Shown here: in pieces, positions 46,617 to 60,564 of the stretch
Position numbering within the stretch: position 1 is the stretch's first letter
Layout: every line of letters starts with the position of its first letter
NCBI RefSeq assembly: GCF_018883605.1
Contig: NZ_JAHLEM010000015.1
Location: 1-64,000 of the forward strand
Reading direction: 5' to 3'
Origin: Streptomyces niphimycinicus
GTDB taxonomy: Bacteria; Actinomycetota; Actinomycetes; Streptomycetales; Streptomycetaceae
Length of the DNA stretch: 64,000 nt
The notes under the pieces: model-generated
Told to the model about the DNA's origin: nothing
Seen by the model: the letters and a program-made list of their open reading frames with translations, nothing else
The model's database searches: none
Made by a program: the position numbers and the translations under genes

Positions 46617-46983
46617 GCCCGCCACCGCGCCGACGCGAGGCCGGCCGGGGAACACCTGCGATCCGGGGCTGAGCTTCAGGAGGGGGATATCAGGTTGCCG
46701 CGGTAGCCGCGCTGCGGGAACCCGGCGGCACCACGCCAAGGGAGGGCGCTCACGGGTCCTGCCGGTGGGTAGCGCGAATCTCGCTGAATCCGGGGCAAGA
46801 AGGAACCCGGAAGCCCGGGTGCTCATCACCGGCGGCGCCGCTCCGCACAGGGCCGCCGAACACATCCGGGCGACTGAGGTGCCGGGATTGGAGGCCAAGC
46901 CTGCCGAAGTCGTCAGCTCGCGCCCCTGGCCTCTCCTAGGCTGGCGGTGCATCGGAGCACAACCACGGCAGAGCGGAAGAACC
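46617..46983. other. Spacer between the two SWIM genes
   Basis: 367 bases. The frame open into the downstream gene has no homologous or coding-like sequence before ATG 46984. It contains a purine-rich GGAAG ribosome binding site just before that ATG and GC-rich partial hairpins (ccgcggtagccgcgctgcgg around 46697) that could act as attenuator or terminator. No gene supported. Confidence 0.4.
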
Positions 46984-48669
46984 ATGCGCGGCCTCACTGA
47001 GGCGAACCTCAAAATGCTGGCCGGCCCCCGTTCCTACGAGCGCGGGCTCGGCTACCTGGACGCGGTGTCCGGAGTCGAGGTCGGTGACGGCTGGGTCACC
47101 GCGAGTGTCCATGGCACGGAGCGGTACGAGGTGGAGCTGACGCTGGACGGGACAGGTGGGCTGTCCGGAGAGTGCGACTGCCCGTACGGCATGGAGGGCA
47201 ACTTCTGCAAGCATCTGGTCGCCCTCGGCCTGACGGTGCTCGCCCAGCGGGAGAGCCTGCCGCGGCAGCGGAAGGCGGCCCGGGACCGTGCGCAGGACCT
47301 TGACGGGTGGCTGTCCGCCCTGTCCAAGGACTCATTACTCGCCCTCGTACGGGAACAGATCGCCGAGGACCGGCAGTTGCGCCGCCGCCTGGAGCTTCGG
47401 GCCGCGAGCGCTCGCGGCGACCTCGCCGCGGTCCGGGCCCGTATCCGTGATCTGCTGGACATCTCACCGTTCACGCAGTACGGGTACGTCGAGTACGCCG
47501 ATGCCCGCGCCTACGCCGATCAGGCCGGGCAGGCGGTGTCCGCGATCGGCGCGCTCACCGGTTCGGGCCGGGCCGACGACGCGATCACCCTGGCGCGGGA
47601 GGCGATGAAGCTGCTCGCCGACGCGGTGGAGAGCGTCGACGACTCGGACGGATGGCTCGGGCAGGTCGGTGCGGACCTCGCCGACGCCCACCTCGAAGCG
47701 TGCCGTGCGGCACGCCCCGACCCCGAGGAGCTCGCGCGCTGGCTGGTCGGTCATGCGCTCGGCGACGTGGACGACGGCCTCACGGACATCGATCCGCTCG
47801 ACTACGAGGACGTCCTCGGCGAAGAGGGGATGGCCGTCCTGCGGAAGTCGGCGGTCGAGGCGTGGCGGGGGAACCGCCGCGGCTGGGCGGAGAAGTACCT
47901 GATGGAGCGTCTGGCCAAGGCGGGAGGTGACGTGGACGCGGTGATCGCCGTGCATGCGGCCGACCTCTCACCGAACGGCCACACACACCTGGTCATCGCC
48001 CACGAGCTGGACACCGCCCGGCGCCCCGACGAGGCCCTGCGCTGGGCGGAACGCGGCATCCAGGAAACCCGGGGCACCTGTGACCTCGCCGTCATCGACA
48101 CCGCCCTCGTCGACTACCTCTGCGACCGCTACGCGCAGGCGGATCGGATGCCCGATGCCGTCGCCCTGCGCCGCGACCACTTCGGCGCCCGCCGCACCCT
48201 GCTCGCGTACCAGCAACTGCGAGCCGCCGCCCGGGCCGCGGACTGCTGGCCGGCCGAGCGTGAGGGAGCGCTGGCTCTGCTGCGTGCCGACGCAGAGCAG
48301 CAACAGCACTCGCGGTACGGCGGCCCGATCCTGATCGACGCCCTGCTCGACGACAAGGACACCGACGCGGCCTGGCATGCCGCCACCGAGACCGGCGCCC
48401 ACGACCAACAGTGGCTCACGCTCGCCGACCAGGCCCGTGCCGCCCGCCCCGCCGACGCCCTCGGCGTCTACCGGCGCCTGGCCGAAGCCCTCACGAAGCA
48501 GACGGGTAACGCGATCTACGAGCAGCTCACCAGCCTGCTGCTGAGCATCCGCGACTGCCACCGCCGCCTGGGTACACAGGACGAGTTCACCACATACCTC
48601 ACCGCCCTGCGCGCCGACCAGAAGCGCAAACGAAACCTGATGCGGCTCCTGGACCAGCACGGCCTGTGA
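46984..48669 (+). CDS. SWIM zinc-finger protein (long) with helical repeat C-terminus
   Basis: 561 residues from ATG 46984, chosen for the GGAAG upstream and the canonical start MRGLTEANLKMLAG. A classic SWIM motif CDCPYGMEGNFCKHLVALGL lies at about residues 60-80. The remaining 480 residues are alpha-helical, TPR/HEAT-like, with repeated segments such as ADLAEAHLEA-like and ALRWAERGIQE. It is a common actinobacterial protein type without a settled function. It lies with the shorter SWIM gene between two imperfect direct repeats and may have arrived with them. Confidence 0.75.
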   Translation: MRGLTEANLKMLAGPRSYERGLGYLDAVSGVEVGDGWVTASVHGTERYEVELTLDGTGGLSGECDCPYGMEGNFCKHLVALGLTVLAQRESLPRQRKAARDRAQDLDGWLSALSKDSLLALVREQIAEDRQLRRRLELRAASARGDLAAVRARIRDLLDISPFTQYGYVEYADARAYADQAGQAVSAIGALTGSGRADDAITLAREAMKLLADAVESVDDSDGWLGQVGADLADAHLEACRAARPDPEELARWLVGHALGDVDDGLTDIDPLDYEDVLGEEGMAVLRKSAVEAWRGNRRGWAEKYLMERLAKAGGDVDAVIAVHAADLSPNGHTHLVIAHELDTARRPDEALRWAERGIQETRGTCDLAVIDTALVDYLCDRYAQADRMPDAVALRRDHFGARRTLLAYQQLRAAARAADCWPAEREGALALLRADAEQQQHSRYGGPILIDALLDDKDTDAAWHAATETGAHDQQWLTLADQARAARPADALGVYRRLAEALTKQTGNAIYEQLTSLLLSIRDCHRRLGTQDEFTTYLTALRADQKRKRNLMRLLDQHGL

Positions 48670-49460: not shown

Positions 49461-49865
49461 GTGGATCAGAACGTGCTGGCGCTTGCAGGAGCCGCAGGTA
49501 CGACCATCGTGACGCTGATGGTCACCGACGCATGGGAGCAGGCCAGGCGCGGTGTTGTATCCCTCTGGCAACGCTTTCGGCCGCAGGAGGCGGAGGAAAT
49601 CGATGGACTTCTGTCCAGGTCGCGTGAGGCTCTCCTCACCGGCGGGGAGCAGGCCGACATCGAAAGCGAGTGGCAACTCCGTCTCGGCGCTCTGTTGGCT
49701 CAGCGGCAGGAAGCCACAGCCGCACTGTCGTCCCTGCTGAGTGAGCTGAACTCTGACCGGAACGGCCAGGTGATCAGTGGAACGATGCACCTCGAGGCGC
49801 ACGTCGGCGGCCAGGGGCAGGTTTACCAGTCCGCACGTGACCAGACCGTGAACCACTACCGCTGA
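49461..49865 (+). CDS. Small membrane-associated protein with C-terminal amyloid-like motif
   Basis: 134 residues from GTG 49461 with AAGGGGAG directly upstream. The N-terminus is hydrophobic (LALAGAAGTTIVTLMV), then a helical segment (WEQARRGVVSLWQRFRP, EAEEIDGLLSRSREALL). The last 30 residues read GTMHLEAHVGGQGQVYQ then SARDQTVNHY. This G-x-G-x-V-Y-Q-x-x-RDQTV motif recurs at the N-terminus of the next protein. It resembles the Gly/Gln-rich strand motifs of bacterial amyloid-signalling (RHIM-like) sequences. The stop is 6 bases before the next ATG. Function unknown; I infer a membrane effector or adaptor of the downstream NLR-type protein. Confidence 0.65.
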   Translation: MDQNVLALAGAAGTTIVTLMVTDAWEQARRGVVSLWQRFRPQEAEEIDGLLSRSREALLTGGEQADIESEWQLRLGALLAQRQEATAALSSLLSELNSDRNGQVISGTMHLEAHVGGQGQVYQSARDQTVNHYR

Positions 49866-49871
49866 TCGAGC

Positions 49872-50981
49872 ATGAACGAGTCAACAGACCCTCTCACTGG
49901 CGCGATCCACTTGTGGGGTACCGCTTCGGAGGGCGCTGGCGTGTACCAGGCGGGTCGAGACCAGACCGTGATGCACGTCAACCTCAATGTGAGTGGGGAC
50001 CAGGATGGTTCAGGGCACCTCGGCCTACGTGTCACCCCGGAAGCTGCTCAACAGCACACGCAGTACGTCATCGAGAAATTGACCCTGGCTGTTGAGCACT
50101 TCCGCCGCAGATGCGAGGAACTGGAGGACGAGGCGTGCCGGGCCCGTATGGAAGGACGCCGCGAGGCGCTGCGCGAGGTGGAGCAGAAACTGCGGGACGC
50201 CGAGTGGCGTGTGATGCAGGCCCAGGCGATGAAAAAGCAGGCCGAGCAGGAACGCGAGCGTCTCGAGGCCCTCTTGGCCCGGTCGCGGTACAGGGCGGCC
50301 GCAGCGAGTCGGCAGCCGGCGCAGGGGGTGGCGGCGCCGGACGACCAGCGAGTCTTCGAGACAGTCCTGGCCTCGGCCGATGACGAACTGCAATTGATTC
50401 GTGAAGAGTTGCGCACTCTGGCCGACGATCTTCGGGGGAGTGAGGAGCGGCCCGACGGCGGTCGGGTTGTACGAGGTGAAACCGAACCCGCGCCCCCGGT
50501 CGTCCCGGACCGGGCGCCTGAGGTCGCCACCGGGACTTCGATCGGCTCCCCGGCGCCTGGGACACCGCGCTCTCAAGCGCGAGCGGTGACCAGTACCTCG
50601 CAGCGCGCCACCCGCACGCTGGGACGCGGCCGACGGTTCCTAGGCCGCCTGTTCTTCGTCTCCGCCGGATTGCCGATGCCCGTCGCAGGCGCGGCCATAA
50701 GAGCGACGTTCTCCCACGAACCGGGAGTGGCAGTCATCTGGCGCGTTCTGTTCCCCGTGAGCGCGGTACTTCTCGTCACCATGGCGGCCGCCCTGCTCCT
50801 CTTGTTCGCTAGGTTGGCGTACGCGTGGGGGCAGGACGAAGGAACACATTCATTGAGCTGTGCCGTCCACGCAATAGTGGGCATCGTGACCTGCCTCGTG
50901 GGAATGGCACTGACGCCGGACGCCCTGCCGCTGCTGGCCGACTGCGGCCGGTTGTTCGCGGAGTACCTCGGTCCGTTGTAG
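49872..50981 (+). CDS. Coiled-coil, multi-helix membrane protein with N-terminal amyloid-like motif
   Basis: 369 residues. N-terminus: TGAIHLWGTASEGAGVYQ then AGRDQTVMHVNLNVSG, repeating the motif that ends the preceding protein. Next, a long charged coiled coil (about 60-140; RREALREVEQKLRDAEWRV, KKQAEQERERLEALLAR), a disordered Pro/Thr/Arg linker, and two or three transmembrane segments at the end (FPVSAVLLVTMAAALLLLFA, AVHAIVGIVTCLVGMAL). The order motif-coil-membrane is what one expects of a signal-activated membrane effector. It is translationally close to the upstream gene and shares its strand with the DUF6879 pair and the NB-ARC gene. No catalytic motif. Confidence 0.68.
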   Translation: MNESTDPLTGAIHLWGTASEGAGVYQAGRDQTVMHVNLNVSGDQDGSGHLGLRVTPEAAQQHTQYVIEKLTLAVEHFRRRCEELEDEACRARMEGRREALREVEQKLRDAEWRVMQAQAMKKQAEQERERLEALLARSRYRAAAASRQPAQGVAAPDDQRVFETVLASADDELQLIREELRTLADDLRGSEERPDGGRVVRGETEPAPPVVPDRAPEVATGTSIGSPAPGTPRSQARAVTSTSQRATRTLGRGRRFLGRLFFVSAGLPMPVAGAAIRATFSHEPGVAVIWRVLFPVSAVLLVTMAAALLLLFARLAYAWGQDEGTHSLSCAVHAIVGIVTCLVGMALTPDALPLLADCGRLFAEYLGPL

Positions 50982-51263: not shown

Positions 51264-51533
51264 ATGGCCCGTGCCTGGGAGGCTGACCCGTCCGCGTTAT
51301 TCGAGCGTCGGCTTGGGAAGTCGGCCGAAGAGCTCGGGAACTCCGATGGTAATGACGAGTGTCCGGACATCTGGCAGCTCGACAACGGTGATGTGGCTGT
51401 GATCGGCAGGGATCTGACAGCCGTCTACGGCCCCCGCCTGCCGCAGGGCGTGAGCCTCGCTCCTGATGAGCGGCTGGTCGTCATCCCGGGGAACATGCTC
51501 CGCGCGGCGAAGAAGGACATCCCCGATGCTTGA
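51264..51533 (+). CDS. Small acidic protein, usual partner of DUF6879
   Basis: 89 residues from ATG 51264 with GGAGG upstream. Contains DIWQLDNGDVAVIGRDLTA and RLPQGVSLAPDERLVVIP, the beta-rich pattern of small Streptomyces proteins encoded before DUF6879 genes. Overlaps the next gene by 8 bases, hence translationally coupled. No known activity. Confidence 0.72.
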   Translation: MARAWEADPSALFERRLGKSAEELGNSDGNDECPDIWQLDNGDVAVIGRDLTAVYGPRLPQGVSLAPDERLVVIPGNMLRAAKKDIPDA

Positions 51534-52164
51534 TCTCCTCGCCCCCGTCCTCGTTCCCGAGCAGGGCGATCGGCTCACCCGCACCGCCTACAAGGAGGAC
51601 TTCCGGCAACGGGAGGACGCGGTCCGTAACGGCAGTTCCTGGAAACTGGAGCGCCGACAGCACTTCGAGGAGCAGGGCAGTCCGAGCCGGGACGCCCTGC
51701 GCCGGGGTGACTGGGAGGAGGCGCTTCGGCTCCTCGCCGACCGACGCGACACCTTGGCCGCGACCGCTCAGGAAGACGAGCGCAGGGGATATGTCTTTCA
51801 CCGTGTGCGGGTGGTCGAGAGTCCACTGACGCCGTATGTGCAGTGGGAACTCCACTCCCAGCGCCAGCGCGCGGAGTACGGGCAGCGGATCAGGGTCGTG
51901 CCCGCCGCGCAGGTGACCGTCTCGGAGGACACCGGTCCGCTTCCGGAAGTGGTGGTGCTGGGCGGCCGCACCCTCTTCCAAGTCCTGTACACCGAAGCAG
52001 GAGTTGCGAACGGTGCGATCCGCTACACCGACCGTGACCTCGTCGAGCGCTGGGAGAACTACATCAAGGCGCTCTACGCGGTGGGTGAAGGGGTGATCTC
52101 CTACTTCGACCGTGAGGTGGCGCGCCTTGATCCGCCGACGCTGAGCGACGCGGGAAGGGAGTAG
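51526..52164 (+). CDS. DUF6879-type protein
   Basis: 212 residues from ATG 51526. Typical blocks: KLERRQHFEEQGSPSRDALRRG in part, a VFHRVRVVESPLTPYVQWEL strand, IRVVPAAQV, and YFDREVARLD near the end. These match my memory of the abundant actinobacterial DUF6879 family, usually found near XRE regulators; function unknown. The frame at 51466 would only add 20 unlikely codons. Its stop at 52162-52164 lies inside the ribosome binding region of the following NB-ARC gene, so the two are probably coupled. Confidence 0.72.
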   Translation: MLDLLAPVLVPEQGDRLTRTAYKEDFRQREDAVRNGSSWKLERRQHFEEQGSPSRDALRRGDWEEALRLLADRRDTLAATAQEDERRGYVFHRVRVVESPLTPYVQWELHSQRQRAEYGQRIRVVPAAQVTVSEDTGPLPEVVVLGGRTLFQVLYTEAGVANGAIRYTDRDLVERWENYIKALYAVGEGVISYFDREVARLDPPTLSDAGRE

Positions 52165-52168
52165 ACCG

Positions 52169-54586
52169 ATCGCATCGCCAGGTGGACAGGACGAGCACTT
52201 CGGCAGCACCCACTCCGAGCTGTCGGGATCCTCACGTGACGTCGTCCAGGCGAGAAGTGTCCACGGAGGCATCCACTTCCACGCGCAGGGCACACCGGAC
52301 CCGGGGAGGTCTTCCAGCCCTGTCCCACGCCAGTTACCGGCCGACGTGGGCGGATTCGTCAACCGAACCGATGAGCTCGGCCAGTTGAACGCCGTCCTCA
52401 CCACCGAGGACGGCGGTCCGCTCGTCGTCTCGGTATACGTGATCGCCGGCACCGCCGGCGCCGGAAAGACATCGCTGGCACTGCGCTGGGCACACCAGGT
52501 CCGGGAGCGCTTCCCGGATGGCCAGTTGTACGCCAATCTGCGGGGCTACGACCCCGGAGAGCCGGTCGCGGCACGCGAGGCCCTGCACCGCTTGCTGACC
52601 TCGCTCGGTGTCCGGGCCGAAGCCGTACCGCAGGATCTCGACGCGGCCGCTGCGCTATACCGCTCGTTACTGGCCGACCGCCGGGTACTGGTCGTCCTGG
52701 ACAACGCGGCCACCGTCGGCCAGGTCAGGCCCTTGCTGCCAGGGAGCGCGCACAGCCTGGTGCCGGTCACCAGCCGCAGCCGCCTGTCCGGCCTCGCCGT
52801 CCGCGACGGGGCCCGCCGGCTCACGCTCGGCGTGCTGCCGGAGCCGGAGGCGGTTGCCCTGCTGCGCGTCGTCACCGCGGGATACCGGCCGGTCGATGAC
52901 GAACGGCAGCTCGCCGAGTTGGCCCACCTGTGCGCACGCCTCCCGCTCGCTCTGCGGATAGCTGCGGAACGCGCCGCTAGTCACCCCCACCTACGGCTGG
53001 ACGACCTGATCGCCGACCTGCGCGACGAATCGGCCCTCTGGGACGCCCTGAGCACGGGCGACGACGAGGAAGCCGAAGCTGTTCGCACCGTCTTCGCGTG
53101 GTCGTATCGCGCCCTGTCCGAGCAAGCCGCCCGCCTGTTCCGCCTGCTGGGCCTGCACCCCGGACCCGAGTTCGGGCTGCGGGCCGCCGCGGCCCTGGCC
53201 GGGTCGGCCGGCATCAGTCGGTCCCGGCAGATGCTGGACTCTCTGGTCGGCGCACACCTCCTGGAACAGACCGCCCAGGACCGCTACCGGTTCCATGACC
53301 TTCTGCGGGCCTACGCCATCGACCAGGCCCAGCACGAAGAGCCGCCGGCCGAGCGAGAGGCAGCTCTGCGGCGCGTGCTGGAGTGGTATCTGCACACCGC
53401 CGACGCCGCGCAGAGCTGGATCAACCCCGCCGAGGACCGCGTGCCCCTCACGCCCGCCCCGGACGACATCAGCCCGCTGACGTTCTCCGAGTACGACGCC
53501 GCCGTGGACTGGGCCGAGCGCGAGCACGACAACCTCCTCCAGGCCGTGCGTACGGCGGCCGACGCCGGCCAAGACCGACTGGCGTGGCAGTTGGCCACCG
53601 TCCTGTGGAACGCGCAGTTCCCATCCGCCTCGGGCACAAGCTGGCCGGCCGTGGGCCGCATCGGGCTGGAGGCAGCCCAACGGCTGGGGGAACGCGCCGC
53701 ACAAGGCGCACTCCACACCTACCTCGGCATGGCCTACACCCGCATCAACCGCCAAGCCGAAAGCCTCGAATCCCACGAGAACGCGCTGACCATCCGGCGC
53801 GACCTGGGCGATCGCCTTGGCGAAGCACGCTCACTCAACCTGATCGGCCTGAACCATCTCCGCGGCAGACGACTCGACTCCGCTGCCCGCTACTTCGAGC
53901 AGGCCATCTCCGCCTTCCAGGAGCAGGACGCCGCCCACTGGGCCGCCACGGCGATGTCCAACCTCGCGACCACCCACTACCGCGCCGGGCGGCTTCCGGA
54001 GGCGGCGACCGTCATCGACCAGGCCCTGGCAGCGCACCGGACTCTCGGTGATCAGCGCGGCGAAGGCAACATCCTGCGTGTGCTGAGCGACGTCCAACGC
54101 GAACAGGGCGACGTCGAGGCATCCCTGGCCTCGGCCCAGGCCGCCCTCGACATCGCCCTCACCCTCCGCAACCTCCGTCTGGAGGGGTTCTGGCTGCTGA
54201 CCCTCGGCGATGCCCAGCAGGCGAACAGCCAGTACGCCGAGGCCCTGACCTCCTACCAACGATCCGCCACACTCCACCGACGCCTCGCCGACCGCAGCCG
54301 AGAGGCGCTGGCCTGGCAGGGCGTGGGCGAGGTCTACCGCCGCCTTGGACGCCAGACAGAGGCGGCCGACTTCCACCGCCAGGCCGCCTCGACGCACCGC
54401 GATCTCGGCGATGAGTGGCACCAGGCCCTGGCGTTGGATGGCCTGGCCTCGGCGGTACTCGGCGAAAGCCCGGAAGAGGCCCACCGACACTGGACACAGG
54501 TACTGAGGCTGCTAGCCGACTTCGACGATCCTCGCGCAGTGGTGGTGCGGGAGAGAATCGAAAGTCGGCTGACAGAAACTAGCTGA
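52169..54586 (+). CDS. NB-ARC / TPR NLR-type protein with N-terminal amyloid-like motif; unusual (ATC) start
   Basis: 805 residues if read from ATC 52169; 746 if from GTG 52346. The frame is closed by TGA 52142, and no ATG, GTG or TTG occurs in frame before 52346. A strong GGAAGGGAG (52153-52161) stands 7 bases before ATC 52169. The 59 residues so gained contain SELSGSSRDVVQARSVHGG and IHFHAQ, the motif normally found at the start of such Streptomyces proteins. Then NB-ARC: VIAGTAGAGKTSLALRW (P-loop), RVLVVLDNAATVGQVRPLLP, LVPVTSRSRLSGL and LARLPLALRI-like. From about 430 onwards are TPR-type repeats (HTYLGMAYTRINRQAESLES, SLNLIGLNHLRGRRLDSAAR). STAND proteins sense a ligand with the repeats and oligomerise; I infer that it signals to the two motif-bearing membrane proteins upstream. 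Confidence 0.78.
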   Translation: MASPGGQDEHFGSTHSELSGSSRDVVQARSVHGGIHFHAQGTPDPGRSSSPVPRQLPADVGGFVNRTDELGQLNAVLTTEDGGPLVVSVYVIAGTAGAGKTSLALRWAHQVRERFPDGQLYANLRGYDPGEPVAAREALHRLLTSLGVRAEAVPQDLDAAAALYRSLLADRRVLVVLDNAATVGQVRPLLPGSAHSLVPVTSRSRLSGLAVRDGARRLTLGVLPEPEAVALLRVVTAGYRPVDDERQLAELAHLCARLPLALRIAAERAASHPHLRLDDLIADLRDESALWDALSTGDDEEAEAVRTVFAWSYRALSEQAARLFRLLGLHPGPEFGLRAAAALAGSAGISRSRQMLDSLVGAHLLEQTAQDRYRFHDLLRAYAIDQAQHEEPPAEREAALRRVLEWYLHTADAAQSWINPAEDRVPLTPAPDDISPLTFSEYDAAVDWAEREHDNLLQAVRTAADAGQDRLAWQLATVLWNAQFPSASGTSWPAVGRIGLEAAQRLGERAAQGALHTYLGMAYTRINRQAESLESHENALTIRRDLGDRLGEARSLNLIGLNHLRGRRLDSAARYFEQAISAFQEQDAAHWAATAMSNLATTHYRAGRLPEAATVIDQALAAHRTLGDQRGEGNILRVLSDVQREQGDVEASLASAQAALDIALTLRNLRLEGFWLLTLGDAQQANSQYAEALTSYQRSATLHRRLADRSREALAWQGVGEVYRRLGRQTEAADFHRQAASTHRDLGDEWHQALALDGLASAVLGESPEEAHRHWTQVLRLLADFDDPRAVVVRERIESRLTETS

Positions 54587-54896: not shown

Positions 54897-55949
54897 ATGT
54901 CCGCGCCGCTGTATGTTTCCGTGCTGCCCATCCGGCCGCATGCCATGGCCGCTTTCCGGGGGCTGCGGCCCGACATTCAGGCCAGGGTTGCCCCGCTGTG
55001 GACCTTGCCGCCCCGCACTGGCATGCTGCCGGACCTCCTGGCCGTGGAACTTCGCAAGGATGCGGGCCGCGTTTCCACCGCGCACCGTTACCAGTCGGCC
55101 TGGCTGGACGCGCCGTTCACCGACGAGAATGAGGCCGCTGTCCTGGCCGAAACCCTGCCGCCCGAGTGGTGGGCCCAGCGGAACCTGCACCCGGTGACCG
55201 GCCCTTGTCGGCCCGTCCCTCAGCAGTCCCTGGCTCTCGCGGCAGCCCAGCGGCGTGGCGGCGGTCTGGGTATACGCGTGCGGGTCCCGGGTGAGTGGCA
55301 CGACCGGGACATCCCATGTCTATGCGCACTGCTCGACCGTGCTTGTCCCATCGGCCCAGTCGACCTGTTCCTTGATCTGGGCACCGTACTGCCCTCCCGC
55401 AGGGACGCCGCCAAAGAGGCTCTGCGGGCTCTCGACGTGCTGGTCCCACTCGCCCCCTGGCGGACGGTGTTCGTTGTGGCAGGCGGCTTCCCCGAGCCGC
55501 CCGAGGGCTTCCTGGAGAGCGCCTGGCATGAGTCGCCACGATCGGACTGGGACACGTGGCACGAGATCCACCACAGCGGGCGCTCCTACCTCCCGTTGCT
55601 GCAATACGGCGACTACGGCATCCTCCCCGCCGGGTACGTCACCCAGACCGCGGTCTCGGGCAACGGAGGACCGAGGTGGGGCATCCTCCGCTACACCACC
55701 ACCCGTTCTTATTTCCTGGCCAAGGCGCTACAGCGCGGCGAACACCGCGATGCCGTCAACCGCGACGCCGCGCGGCGCCTCACCCGCCTCGCGGACTTCC
55801 GTGGCCCGTCCGTTGGAACGGGGGAGGGCTGGCTGCGCGACTGCGCCCAGGGATCCGTCACCACCGGCAACCACTCCGTGTGGAACCGAGTGGGAAACAT
55901 CCAGCACATGACGTTCGTCGTCAATTGTCCCGCAGGGCAATTCGGTTGA
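54897..55949 (+). CDS. Beta-family protein (full length)
   Basis: 350 residues from ATG 54897 with GGGGGAG upstream. It has the complete beta-family (PF14350-like) form: the first strand PLYVSVLPIRPHAMAAFRGL, VAPLWTLPP, internal VDLFLDLGTVLP, RYTTTRSYFLAKALQRGE, and the C-terminal NHSVWNRVGNIQHMTFVVN. The truncated relative at 6476-7517 lacks exactly the first of these. In other bacteria the family occurs in phages and defence islands; a biochemical role is unproven. It stands between the NLR cluster and the R-M system. Confidence 0.75.
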   Translation: MSAPLYVSVLPIRPHAMAAFRGLRPDIQARVAPLWTLPPRTGMLPDLLAVELRKDAGRVSTAHRYQSAWLDAPFTDENEAAVLAETLPPEWWAQRNLHPVTGPCRPVPQQSLALAAAQRRGGGLGIRVRVPGEWHDRDIPCLCALLDRACPIGPVDLFLDLGTVLPSRRDAAKEALRALDVLVPLAPWRTVFVVAGGFPEPPEGFLESAWHESPRSDWDTWHEIHHSGRSYLPLLQYGDYGILPAGYVTQTAVSGNGGPRWGILRYTTTRSYFLAKALQRGEHRDAVNRDAARRLTRLADFRGPSVGTGEGWLRDCAQGSVTTGNHSVWNRVGNIQHMTFVVNCPAGQFG

Positions 55950-57909: not shown

Positions 57910-57942
57910 GATGTGTGGACGTTAGGACGGTGCAGACGATGG

Positions 57943-57962
57943 GTCTACAGACTATGAGTAAC
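57943..57962 (-). promoter_or_regulatory. Putative controller operator, copy 1
   Basis: Read on the minus strand: GTTACTCATAGTCTGTAGAC. It contains two overlapping symmetric elements (ACT-nnn-AGT and GTCT-nn-AGAC), similar in form to C-boxes. It is 33 bases before the controller ATG and overlaps the likely methyltransferase start. An exact copy occurs at 59858. Confidence 0.75.
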
Positions 57963-59675
57963 GTTGGGGGTACGGCTGAGGAGATCGTGGTGGGTCGTGG
58001 TGACCCTGCCTATCTCGCGCACGCCTACCTGACGAAGGTCCCTGTGCCCGCTATTACGCCGTTCGTCGAGGCTTACTGTCCGCCCAACGGCGTCGTGGCT
58101 GATCCGTTCGCCGGGTCTGGGATGACGGGGGTCGCGGCGCGGATCACCGGGCGCCAGGCACGCCTGTCGGACATCTCTGTGCTGGGGCGACATATTGGCT
58201 CCAACTACCTAAGCATGGTCGAAGGGTACGAGTTCACCAGGGCCGCGCAGGCCGTCATCAAGCGGGCCCGGGACGCTGTCGGCAAGATCTACGAGGTCCC
58301 CTGCCGTGGGTGCGGTGGAACCGGTCAGCTTGCGAAGACTGTCTGGAGCGTCCTGGTGAGGTGCGCGGGCTGTGAGAAGCCCGTGAGCTACTACCACTCG
58401 CTCGAGGCCGCGGAGTGGTCGAAGCCGAAGATGGTCTGTCCCCATTGTTCGGCCCACATTTCGAGCAAGCTCGAGCGCGTGGGTGAGCAGCCCGTGGTCG
58501 ACTACGTCAACTGCGCGTGCTCCCCGAAGCAGCGTGAGCAGCCGGCGGTCGCCGCGCCGAGCATCGACGTCGACGGCCTGGACTTCCCCCGCGTTGAGAT
58601 TACGCCTGACCGGGAGATGTACCGGGCGTCTGCGCTGGGCAAGAGCGGCTACACGACCGTGGCTTCGTTCTATTCGCCGCGTAACCTGCGCACTCTGGTG
58701 GCCCTGCGCGATGAGATCCACGGGATTGAGGACCGCGCTCTGAGTCAAAAGCTGCTGTTCGCGTTCACCGCGACGTTGACTCGGGCAAGCAAGCGGTATC
58801 AGTGGTCGCACAAACGCCCGCTGAACGCCGCGAACCAGAACTACTACATCGCGCCGGTCTTCTACGAGTGGAACGTCTTCGAGCTCTTCGAGCGTAAGAC
58901 GACCGCCGTGCTGAAGGCTGATGACTGGATCCGGACGCAAGCGTTCACGCGCAATGTGGACGCGGACACGGTGCCCGCGGAGTACGTCACGGAGAGCGCT
59001 GCGGAGCTGTCCCTGCCGGACGCGAGCGTGGACTACGTGTTCACGGACCCCCCGTTCGGTTCGAACCTCTTTTACGCGGATATGGCTCTGTTCCAGGAGG
59101 GCTGGCTGGACGGCTTCACGGACGCCAGCAAGGAAGCGGTGATCGATCGCTCCACCGGCACGAAGCGCACGGCGGACCGCTACGAGACGCTGCTGACGGA
59201 GTCACTCAAGCACTGCTGCCGCATCTTGAAGCCTGGCGGGCGCATCTCGATGGTCTTCGGCAACTCCTCGGGCAAGATCTGGGCAGTAGTCCAGCGAGCA
59301 GTCGCAGCAGCCGGCCTGCGCATCGAGCCGGAGAAGATCGCCATCCTGAACAAGGGGCAGCGCTCCGTGAAGGGGCTGGCCTCGGGTTTTGAGCACGTCG
59401 CTACGCTCGACCTTGTCCTGACGATGGTTCCGCAGGACGGCGCCGAGGCTTCGTTCAAGCAGCCGACGGCTGAGGCCGTTGCTGCGGCGACGCGCGAGCT
59501 GGTTGGTGCTGCCGCCTCTGCGTCTCCTAGCCATCTGTATCTGGAGCTGCTCCGCCGCGCGCTTTGGGAGGGATGGAGCGTCGCGGACCTCAACTTGCAG
59601 ACGGCGACGACAACGCTGCTGCACGACGGGTGGAGCATCGACCCGAAGACGGGTCTACTGGCCGAGCCCGAGTAG
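57954..59675 (+). CDS. Type II DNA methyltransferase (DPPF-type) with zinc-binding insert
   Basis: 573 residues from ATG 57954; GTG 57915 is also open but would leave no promoter between divergent genes. N-terminal SAM motif: VVADPFAGSGMTGVAAR. Catalytic motif: YVFTDPPFGSNLFYADM. An insert has four C-x2-C-like pairs (EVPCRGCGGTG, VRCAGCEKP, MVCPHCSAHIS, VNCACSPKQ), a probable zinc ribbon pair. C-terminal HCCRILKPGGRISMVFGN is the usual post-catalytic strand. Likely a cytosine-N4 or adenine-N6 modifying enzyme. No Shine-Dalgarno precedes 57954, so a leaderless transcript overlapping the operator is plausible. Confidence 0.85.
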   Translation: MSNVGGTAEEIVVGRGDPAYLAHAYLTKVPVPAITPFVEAYCPPNGVVADPFAGSGMTGVAARITGRQARLSDISVLGRHIGSNYLSMVEGYEFTRAAQAVIKRARDAVGKIYEVPCRGCGGTGQLAKTVWSVLVRCAGCEKPVSYYHSLEAAEWSKPKMVCPHCSAHISSKLERVGEQPVVDYVNCACSPKQREQPAVAAPSIDVDGLDFPRVEITPDREMYRASALGKSGYTTVASFYSPRNLRTLVALRDEIHGIEDRALSQKLLFAFTATLTRASKRYQWSHKRPLNAANQNYYIAPVFYEWNVFELFERKTTAVLKADDWIRTQAFTRNVDADTVPAEYVTESAAELSLPDASVDYVFTDPPFGSNLFYADMALFQEGWLDGFTDASKEAVIDRSTGTKRTADRYETLLTESLKHCCRILKPGGRISMVFGNSSGKIWAVVQRAVAAAGLRIEPEKIAILNKGQRSVKGLASGFEHVATLDLVLTMVPQDGAEASFKQPTAEAVAAATRELVGAAASASPSHLYLELLRRALWEGWSVADLNLQTATTTLLHDGWSIDPKTGLLAEPE

Positions 59676-59693
59676 GCGCTTCGAGTAGCTAGA

Positions 59694-59729
59694 AGGGCGG
59701 CCGCCGCTTCAACAATGGATGGCCGCCCT
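59694..59729. terminator. Terminator-like hairpin after the methyltransferase
   Basis: Perfect 9-bp arms AGGGCGGCC at 59694-59702 and complement at 59721-59729, loop 18 bases, about 20 bases after the methyltransferase stop. It separates that gene from the operator and start of the restriction gene. Confidence 0.6.
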
Positions 59730-59857
59730 GGTGCTGGAGTGGGGACTCGCCGTCGCTTCCGACAGGCCGGTGTGGGTGTCGGAGACGACGACTTGGACGC
59801 CGGACAGGCCGAAGGTGCGCGCTCGAACGCCGGATGCTCACGTTCCGCACTCATCCT

Positions 59858-59877
59858 GTTACTCATAGTCTGTAGAC
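59858..59877 (+). promoter_or_regulatory. Putative controller operator, copy 2
   Basis: GTTACTCATAGTCTGTAGAC on the plus strand, an exact 20-base match to copy 1 in the same orientation relative to its downstream gene. It ends 30 bases before GTG 59908 of the restriction gene. Confidence 0.75.
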
Positions 59878-59907
59878 GTTGATCTAGGTGCGAGCGACTG
59901 TTCCTAT

Positions 59908-60564
59908 GTGACTGATGATCAACTCATCCCGAGTCAGGGAGACCCGGAAGGTCAGGGCGCTCCACTTCACCCGCAAGGTGACATCCGCAAGATCGTTGAA
60001 CTGGGTCATCAGCTTCAGAGGTACGCCTCGGAGCGGCGTATACATAACGTGTTCGACGATGGGGGCTACAAGGAACTATTGCTACTTGAACTTTTCAATC
60101 TCACTAAGGGGGGAGGGCGAGTCGGCAACGATGCAACAGATGCGCTGGGAGGTGAGTATGAAATCAAAACTGTCGCAAGAATGAATTTCAAGGGTGAGCG
60201 CAAGAAGAGTCTTAGCGTTACTACGGAACATACGCTCACTCTCGACAACATTGATCGCTACAGGTCGGTTCATCTCTGGATCGTTGCGGTTTTCGACCAA
60301 TCGACTCCCGAAGCAATCTACGAGATCCATCCGAGAAAGCTGGAGCCGTATTTTTCCCAGTGGGAAGCAACGCTCCAGGAGCAGATCGAGATCGATTCTC
60401 GTCGAGGCGGAGGTGCGCGGCCCCACCTCAACAACCCCAAAATCCCCCTGAACTTCGTTGCGCAGCATGGTGTAAGGGTTTGGCCCCCAGGTGGTCCCGC
60501 TCAGGCCATGCTTCCGAACTACGTTCAAGAAGGACTCGAGGAAGCCCAAGGATTCACTGAGTGA
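59908..60564 (+). CDS. Type II restriction endonuclease candidate, PD-(D/E)XK
   Basis: 218 residues from GTG 59908. The catalytic region GNDATDALGGEYEIKTVARM gives D75/D78 and E85-x-K87, the metal-binding pattern of PD-(D/E)XK restriction enzymes (the E-(I/L)-K-T-V run is frequent in type II enzymes). A central beta strand VHLWIVAVFDQ supports the fold. It lies after the methyltransferase on the same strand and has its own operator copy. The gene is less GC-rich than most of the window (for example 60066-60320), a sign of separate transfer. Recognition site not predictable from this. Confidence 0.78.
   Translation: MTDDQLIPSQGDPEGQGAPLHPQGDIRKIVELGHQLQRYASERRIHNVFDDGGYKELLLLELFNLTKGGGRVGNDATDALGGEYEIKTVARMNFKGERKKSLSVTTEHTLTLDNIDRYRSVHLWIVAVFDQSTPEAIYEIHPRKLEPYFSQWEATLQEQIEIDSRRGGGARPHLNNPKIPLNFVAQHGVRVWPPGGPAQAMLPNYVQEGLEEAQGFTE

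What the first reader, a model, noticed from the sequence alone, without database searches (positions are those of the whole stretch)
52145..52346. NB-ARC gene appears to start at ATC, not ATG/GTG
The motif-bearing N-terminus lies between a closing TGA (52142-52144) and the first conventional start GTG 52346. In that interval there is no in-frame ATG, GTG or TTG, yet GGAAGGGAG sits 7 bases before ATC 52169, in the ideal place. Either AUC is used (rare but known for infC), or ATG has mutated to ATC so that only a motif-less 746-aa protein is made, disarming the NLR.
Basis: seen in the sequence. Interest (0 to 1): 0.65.

Follow-up and report, generated by a model that had tools for sequence, protein, structure and literature searches.

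The report
Immune-type ATPase gene starts at AUC
A Streptomyces gene for an NLR-like signalling ATPase appears to begin at the very rare start codon AUC, and dozens of relatives keep that codon, so it looks like a deliberate brake on making the protein, as in the same bacterium's gene for initiation factor IF3.

Summary
No ATG, GTG or TTG lies in frame between TGA 52142 and GTG 52346; ATC 52169 follows GGAAGGGAG by 7 nt. I compared 72 loci (window included). In 30, no conventional start codon exists between the in-frame stop and the N-terminal motif; all 30 have an in-frame ATC. Six more have such codons only well inside the upstream gene; five have ATC, one ATT. Shine-Dalgarno spacing fits in 33 of these 36. 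Loci with a conventional start have an ATC in 9 of 36, within the chance range. The upstream DUF6879 gene ends in two different frames, from 19 nt before to 14 nt after this codon, which argues against readthrough or frameshifting. infC of the same genome also shows AGGAGG-ATCC-ATC, like 30 of 30 infC loci examined. PMC5472188 states that Streptomyces infC uses ATC and that IF3 represses sigR's GTC start. Best reading: a conserved AUC start keeps an NLR-like STAND ATPase scarce, probably IF3-sensitive and coupled to DUF6879. The "disarmed NLR" branch is rejected. Start use is inferred; no peptide or ribosome data here.

The parts
52169..52171 (+). ATC (AUC) proposed start codon
   Evidence: No ATG/GTG/TTG between TGA 52142 and GTG 52346; in-frame ATC in 30 of 30 loci with strictly no conventional codon and 35 of 36 with none near, ATT in the other
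52153..52161 (+). Shine-Dalgarno-like GGAAGGGAG, 7 nt before ATC
   Evidence: Read directly; a match of 4 or more bases 5-9 nt upstream in 33 of 36 such loci, the ATT locus included
52169..54586 (+). STAND/AfsR-like P-loop ATPase with TPR repeats, 805 aa if begun at AUC
   Evidence: Pfam AAA_22 1.2e-6 and TPR_12 7.1e-23; NCBIfam AfsR model 5.5e-106 but below its cut-off
52241..52282 (+). N-terminal motif VVQARSVHGGIHFH, lost if translation began at GTG 52346
   Evidence: Translation; conserved in relatives with third-position excess, 7155 against 2924 and 2381 differences summed over pairs
52448..52471 (+). Walker A motif GTAGAGKT
   Evidence: Translation; located by script
52220..52222 (+). 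CTG, the only other near-cognate codon tested for upstream of the motif, without Shine-Dalgarno
   Evidence: absent from 5 of 36 loci that have only the ATC or ATT
52346..52348 (+). GTG, first conventional in-frame start (746-aa ORF)
   Evidence: place not conserved in relatives
51526..52164 (+). DUF6879 gene; TAG stop ends 4 nt before ATC; PLD-like fold predicted
   Evidence: Pfam PF21806 9.7e-32; AlphaFold2 pLDDT 93.4; fold matches
51264..51533 (+). Small ORF (89 aa) overlapping the start of the DUF6879 gene
   Evidence: ORF list; no Pfam match; a similar stretch lies beside the S. samsunensis copy L041

Best explanation
The gene is translated from AUC 52169. The AUC is an old, kept start codon of a STAND (NLR-like) ATPase family that sits directly behind a DUF6879 gene. 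Shown here: no conventional start is available; ATC and its Shine-Dalgarno are conserved in many species while the amino acids next to it, the upstream stop and its frame vary; infC in the same genome has the same kind of start. Inferred: ribosomes finishing the DUF6879 gene, or entering at the Shine-Dalgarno, start at AUC with fMet; IF3 rejects most of these attempts, as published for infC and for the GTC start of sigR. The ATPase is therefore made in smaller amounts than its partner DUF6879, and its output rises when IF3 control weakens. This would be a brake against accidental activation of a signalling ATPase.
For: Window reading. In 9 independent pairs on supported branches the two traits went opposite ways in about 6, never the same way (median p 0.03, range 0.008-0.25). 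DUF6879 in the same frame with a stop in 17 and in frame +1 in 19. In 14 of 36 an in-frame stop ends exactly 3 nt before the codon. Motif block under coding constraint. infC in 30 of 30 loci examined: AGGAGG-NNCC-ATC. Literature: infC is ATC in Streptomyces, sigR GTC is repressed by IF3, and canonical codons overproduce SigR (PMC5472188; passages and section 7).
Against: No N-terminal peptide, ribosome profile or reporter. Three of the 36 lack a 4-base Shine-Dalgarno match (L060, L102, L134). Six of the 36 have conventional codons further upstream inside the DUF6879 gene. Half of the loci (36 of 72) have a conventional start near, so AUC is not indispensable; the tree needs at least 13 changes of state. 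Nine with a conventional codon also have an ATC. The stretch between ATC and motif shows no third-position excess in the window's clade. IF3 control and the DUF6879-ATPase ratio are analogies, not tests. The DNA string alone is not diagnostic.
Confidence: 0.83

Rival explanations
1. AUC is the true start, but it is only a tolerated weak start kept by history, with no regulatory role.
For: Conventional and ATC starts are exchanged repeatedly on the tree (at least 13 changes); no functional data.
Against: ATC to ATG is a single-base step, yet ATC survives between proteins only about 60% alike and the only substitute seen among loci without a nearby conventional start is ATT. The own paralogue shows that ATG is possible in this family.
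Confidence: 0.3
2. The ATG was lost by mutation; only a motif-less 746-aa protein is made from GTG 52346.
For: GTG 52346 is the first conventional codon; in 26 of 36 relatives the first conventional codon also lies before the ATPase domain.
Against: ATC is shared by many species; the first conventional codon falls at different places, beyond Walker A in L058 and 9 nt before it in L037; the motif is under coding constraint.
Confidence: 0.03
3. The ATPase is made as a fusion with DUF6879 by stop readthrough or ribosomal frameshifting.
For: Four loci have one open DUF6879-ATPase frame (L077, L079, L080, L085); one, on a Kitasatospora plasmid, is annotated as a single 'DUF6879 family protein'.
Against: Two frame relations (17 and 19 of 36), three stop codons and a stop that lies before or after the ATC would need different recoding in relatives; the Shine-Dalgarno and ATC would have no reason to be kept.
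Confidence: 0.05
4. Translation starts at another near-cognate codon, CTG 52220.
For: CTG is in frame and common at that place in relatives.
Against: No Shine-Dalgarno there in the window; it encodes a leucine of the conserved motif block; absent from 5 of 36 loci whose only near-cognate is ATC or ATT.
Confidence: 0.04
5. The conserved letters are a DNA signal such as GATC methylation or a regulator site, not a start codon.
For: GATC is present in 24 of 36.
Against: In 11 of 36 the base before is C while ATC stays, and one has GATT; the spacing to the Shine-Dalgarno stays 6-8 nt in the 33 that have one; presence of ATC goes with the lack of a conventional start.
Confidence: 0.03

Closest known systems
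infC (IF3) of Streptomyces, AUC start with IF3 autoregulation
   Same: Same codon behind a Shine-Dalgarno; second codon AGC in infC and in 8 of 36 of these genes; present in the same genome. PMC5472188 states ATC for Streptomyces infC (passage read).
   Different: infC is a housekeeping gene that regulates itself; here a STAND ATPase behind a DUF6879 gene, mostly with a shorter Shine-Dalgarno match, and with conventional starts in many relatives.
sigR of Streptomyces, GTC start repressed by IF3 (Feeney et al. 2017, PMC5472188)
   Same: Noncanonical start in a two-gene operon, conserved across Streptomyces, setting the ratio of two partners.
   Different: GTC, not ATC; the rare-start gene comes first there and second here; IF3 repression was measured there and is only inferred here.
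STAND/NLR proteins of the AfsR type (P-loop plus TPR)
   Same: P-loop ATPase and TPR; AfsR model scores 5.5e-106 over residues 56-635.
   Different: Below the AfsR cut-off; the match covers AfsR positions 283-850 only; a short VVQA..GGIHFH N-terminus instead of AfsR's N-terminal part.
NLR-associated bacterial amyloid signalling motifs (BASS; PMC12261475, passages read)
   Same: Short N-terminal motif before an NB-type ATPase, as reported there for a Streptomyces protein.
   Different: No BASS profile was run; resemblance only.

Membership tests
Genes with a noncanonical AUC/AUU start | No conventional start available for the conserved N-terminus | tested here: met
   Window; strictly none in 30 of 72 loci, none near in 36 of 72
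Genes with a noncanonical AUC/AUU start | Rare codon at Shine-Dalgarno distance and conserved | tested here: met
   ATC 35 and ATT 1 of 36; SD of 4 or more bases at 5-9 nt in 33 of 36
Genes with a noncanonical AUC/AUU start | N-terminal peptide or ribosome footprint at the codon | not testable with these tools
   No proteomic or ribosome data held
IF3-repressed genes (infC, sigR) | Output changes with IF3 level or infC fidelity mutation | not testable with these tools
   Analogy with PMC5472188 only
STAND/NLR-like ATPases | P-loop NTPase with C-terminal repeat sensor | tested here: met
   Walker A GTAGAGKT; AAA_22 1.2e-6, TPR_12 7.1e-23
STAND/NLR-like ATPases | Match to Pfam NB-ARC itself | tested here: inconclusive
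   Not among families at E <= 0.01; AfsR-like by NCBIfam, below cut-off
DUF6879 (upstream gene) | Pfam PF21806 above curated cut-off | tested here: met
   110.2 bits against 23.9
Phospholipase D-like superfamily (DUF6879) | PLD fold and HKD residues | tested here: inconclusive
   Foldseek PLD3 and Zucchini E 1.6e-4 to 6.2e-4, TM up to 0.48 by query; Z about 10 to Nuc and SauUSI; no HKD triad seen by eye in the invariant columns
BASS amyloid signalling motifs | Match to a BASS family profile | not tested
   No profile at hand; name from PMC12261475

The most novel reading that the evidence does not exclude
The AUC start is a sensor, not just a brake. The STAND ATPase is a bacterial immune receptor whose synthesis is gated by IF3, so that loss of initiation fidelity (phage takeover of ribosomes, ribosome-targeting antibiotics, IF3 damage) raises the receptor above its DUF6879 partner and arms it. 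infC, sigR and this family would form an IF3-controlled stress and immunity regulon in Streptomyces.
Probability: 0.13. Interest if true: 0.85.

Novelty: new variant of a known kind. Interest (0 to 1): 0.62.

Why it matters
PMC5472188 notes that very few noncanonical start codons have been characterised experimentally and that gene finders rely on ATG, GTG and TTG. Here comparative evidence identifies a gene family with such a start. It implies that a start call at the first conventional codon would cut off the signalling motif, as it would in this window. It also makes a direct test possible of how bacteria keep NLR-like proteins quiet: swap one base and measure. If IF3 control is confirmed, it links translation-initiation fidelity to a putative immune receptor.

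Tried and rejected
Pattern search for GGAGTARNCGATCA in 121 genomes to find further AUC-start families: 75 of 121 genomes had a hit. 30 matches became loci; 28 of them gave output in my script, with frames from the ATC of 2 to 192 aa that I did not test further, and L169 and L172 printed nothing. At least two of the listed hits outside those 30 are the known STAND loci in G014 and G068. So the string is not diagnostic. The tool's reversed-pattern control is low, but it contains CTAG, which I recall to be rare in Streptomyces, so I did not use it.

Viral contigs: no relative. Plasmids: four records, one with a fused annotation. sigR as a second yardstick in the own genome: no match over the family's cut-off, so its start was not checked. 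PADLOC gave TPR and a weak Cas3fv match (0.0055) for the ATPase. DUF6879 is in no held paper.

Paper searches touching this start or family. None of the titles and abstracts listed named an AUC-start STAND gene; only part of the hits was listed, and most subscription journals are not held.

Rows dropped or moved before counting: 4 duplicates; 5 loci without a recognisable motif region (L038, L100, L139, L143, L147); loci scoring under 650 bits against the ATPase, among them L040 (which shows the same ATC) and the distant homologues; L053, whose N-terminal frame is broken although its ATC is present, was left out of the counts but labelled ATC by hand in the tree. L004 was moved by hand to 'conventional' because my script's limit hid its GTG. 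In six of the 36 (L049, L068, L075, L093, L096, L137) conventional codons well inside the DUF6879 gene, more than 30 nt before its stop, were not counted as starts. Matches that were not fetched as loci were not examined, apart from those fetched.

Full report
What is in the sequence. The ORF 52145-54586 follows a TGA at 52142-52144 and holds no ATG, GTG or TTG before GTG 52346; ATC 52169 lies 7 nt behind GGAAGGGAG. The gene encodes a P-loop ATPase with TPR repeats (AAA_22, TPR_12). It scores against the AfsR model but below that model's cut-off. Pfam's NB-ARC model was not hit at E <= 0.01, so 'NB-ARC' describes the kind of protein rather than a tested assignment. Directly upstream is a DUF6879 gene, 51526-52164, whose TAG ends 4 nt before the ATC.

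Relatives. I searched 61 genomes of relatives, 392 of the genus (24 with a match at E <= 1e-230), 394 of the family (36 with a match), each count including the own genome and the sets overlapping; the named genome collection (12 loci); and plasmids (4 records). After removing duplicates, low scores and loci without a readable N-terminus, 73 unique loci remained, the window among them. One of these (L053) has a broken N-terminal frame and was not counted, leaving 72.

The start codon is conserved. In 30 of 72 loci there is no ATG, GTG or TTG at all between the in-frame stop and the motif; all 30 have an in-frame ATC, 27 of them at Shine-Dalgarno distance. Six more loci have such codons only well inside the DUF6879 gene, more than 30 nt before its stop; five have ATC and one (L137) has ATT behind AGGAG. 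In these 36 together a match of at least four bases to AGGAGGTG lies 5-9 nt before the codon in 33, and the base ten positions upstream is G in 35. Among the 36 loci with a conventional start near, 9 have any in-frame ATC in the region and 7 a Shine-Dalgarno-spaced one. ATC makes up 1.7% of codons in the gene bodies; at least one is expected in 19% of 12-codon and 40% of 30-codon stretches. On the tree, in pairs of rows on separate supported branches, the two traits never went the same way and went opposite ways in about 6 of 9 pairs (median p 0.03, range 0.008-0.22 or 0.25). That is modest support once kinship is allowed for.

Age and spread. The nine loci of the window's own clade, which include S. 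violaceusniger, S. iranensis, S. samsunensis, S. antioxidans and S. coffeae, all carry the ATC, L053 by hand because its frame is broken. The 36 loci come from Streptomyces and three further genus codes of the family. A tree of 73 proteins, built without the N-terminus, needs 13 changes between ATC-type and the rest, 9 of them forced by starred branches. The trait is therefore clustered but repeatedly exchanged; the root is drawn at the midpoint only, so the direction is not shown. The own genome's 61% paralogue starts at ATG overlapping the DUF6879 stop.

Why not something else. In 17 of 36 loci DUF6879 is in the same frame and stopped; in 19 it is in frame +1. Its stop ends between 19 nt before and 14 nt after the first base of the codon, and all three stop codons occur. 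One recoding mechanism would hardly serve all of these. CTG 52220 lacks a Shine-Dalgarno, and its counterpart is missing in five loci whose only near-cognate codon is ATC or ATT. GATC is present in 24 of 36; in 11 of 36 the base before is C while ATC stays, so the four-letter site is not what is kept. Translation from the first conventional codon would not give one protein: that codon lies before the ATPase domain in 26 of 36, after its beginning in 9 and beyond Walker A in 1. In those 26 a shortened but whole ATPase would remain possible, which is a limit of this argument. The motif block shows coding constraint in this frame (7155 third-position against 2924 and 2381 first- and second-position differences, summed over related pairs). 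In the fast-evolving stretch between ATC and motif the window's clade shows no such excess, so that stretch alone would not prove translation.

A yardstick in the same genome. infC of this genome reads AGGAGG-ATCC-ATC-AGC and has no conventional codon within 60 nt before the conserved part. All 30 infC loci examined, of 31 genomes with a match, carry AGGAGG-NNCC-ATC; some also have an ATG or GTG further upstream. PMC5472188 (passages and section 7 read) states that infC has ATC in Streptomyces. It also shows that the GTC start of sigR is repressed by IF3 and that changing GTC to canonical codons overproduces SigR and upsets the system. PMC2268962 (passages read) reports that extra IF3 lowers re-initiation in E. 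coli and impairs M13 propagation.

How it probably works. Step 1, inferred from conservation: initiation with fMet at AUC 52169. Step 2, inferred from position: partly by ribosomes that finish DUF6879, partly by entry at the Shine-Dalgarno. Step 3, by analogy with infC and sigR: rejection of most attempts by IF3. Step 4, inference: the ATPase stays below DUF6879 in amount. That the two work together is suggested by four loci with one open DUF6879-ATPase frame (L077, L079, L080, L085). One is a Kitasatospora plasmid; the others share the genus code of the genome that holds the same sequence (G536). At the place of ATC these carry GTG 4 nt behind GGAG.

The partner. DUF6879 is predicted with high confidence (pLDDT 93.4) and resembles phospholipase D-like domains: PLD3 and Zucchini by Foldseek (E 1.6e-4 to 6.2e-4, query TM up to 0.48), Nuc and the PLD domain of SauUSI by VIA-align (Z about 10, rmsd 3.5-3.8). 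I saw no HKD triad among its invariant columns (by eye), so it may be a non-catalytic PLD fold. This is a lead, not a result.

Verdict. The mutation reading is very probably wrong; the AUC reading is right with high probability. An AUC start under IF3 control is known from infC, and GTC from sigR. I found no report of one in a STAND/NLR-like gene in the searches named under Tried and rejected. It is a new variant of a known kind of control, in a gene family where dosage plausibly matters.

Noticed in passing
window 57915-60561: Type II restriction-modification pair: N6/N4 DNA methyltransferase (PF01555; PADLOC MTase_II 4.9e-99) and a PvuII-like endonuclease (PF09225 2.7e-30), so the ATPase lies near other defence genes.
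   Followed up: partly
window 54897-55946: Beta_protein (PF14350 3.8e-49) with weak similarity to PADLOC PD-Lambda-2_C (9.1e-11), the next long ORF after the ATPase gene on this strand.
   Followed up: no
window 49461-49862 and 49872-50978: Two neighbouring proteins without Pfam match that both carry VYQ-x-x-RDQTV-x-H, near the C-terminus of the first and the N-terminus of the second; a possible signalling-motif pair.
   Followed up: no
L077, L079, L080, L085: Loci with one open DUF6879-ATPase frame; a Kitasatospora plasmid copy is annotated as a single 'DUF6879 family protein'.
   Followed up: partly
L041 2990-3200 (S. samsunensis): A second copy in which the small ORF's end is followed directly by the ATPase N-terminus, with the DUF6879 gene missing, and then sequence unlike the ATPase; looks like a deletion remnant.
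   Followed up: partly
window 51526-52161: DUF6879 is predicted with a phospholipase D-like fold, apparently without the HKD residues.
   Followed up: partly
L053 (G120): N-terminal frame broken just before the motif in one close relative although the ATC is present: assembly error or recent loss.
   Followed up: no
window 46765-48666: Protein with DUF6880 similarity (7.6e-8) and a SWIM zinc-finger match below its cut-off.
   Followed up: no
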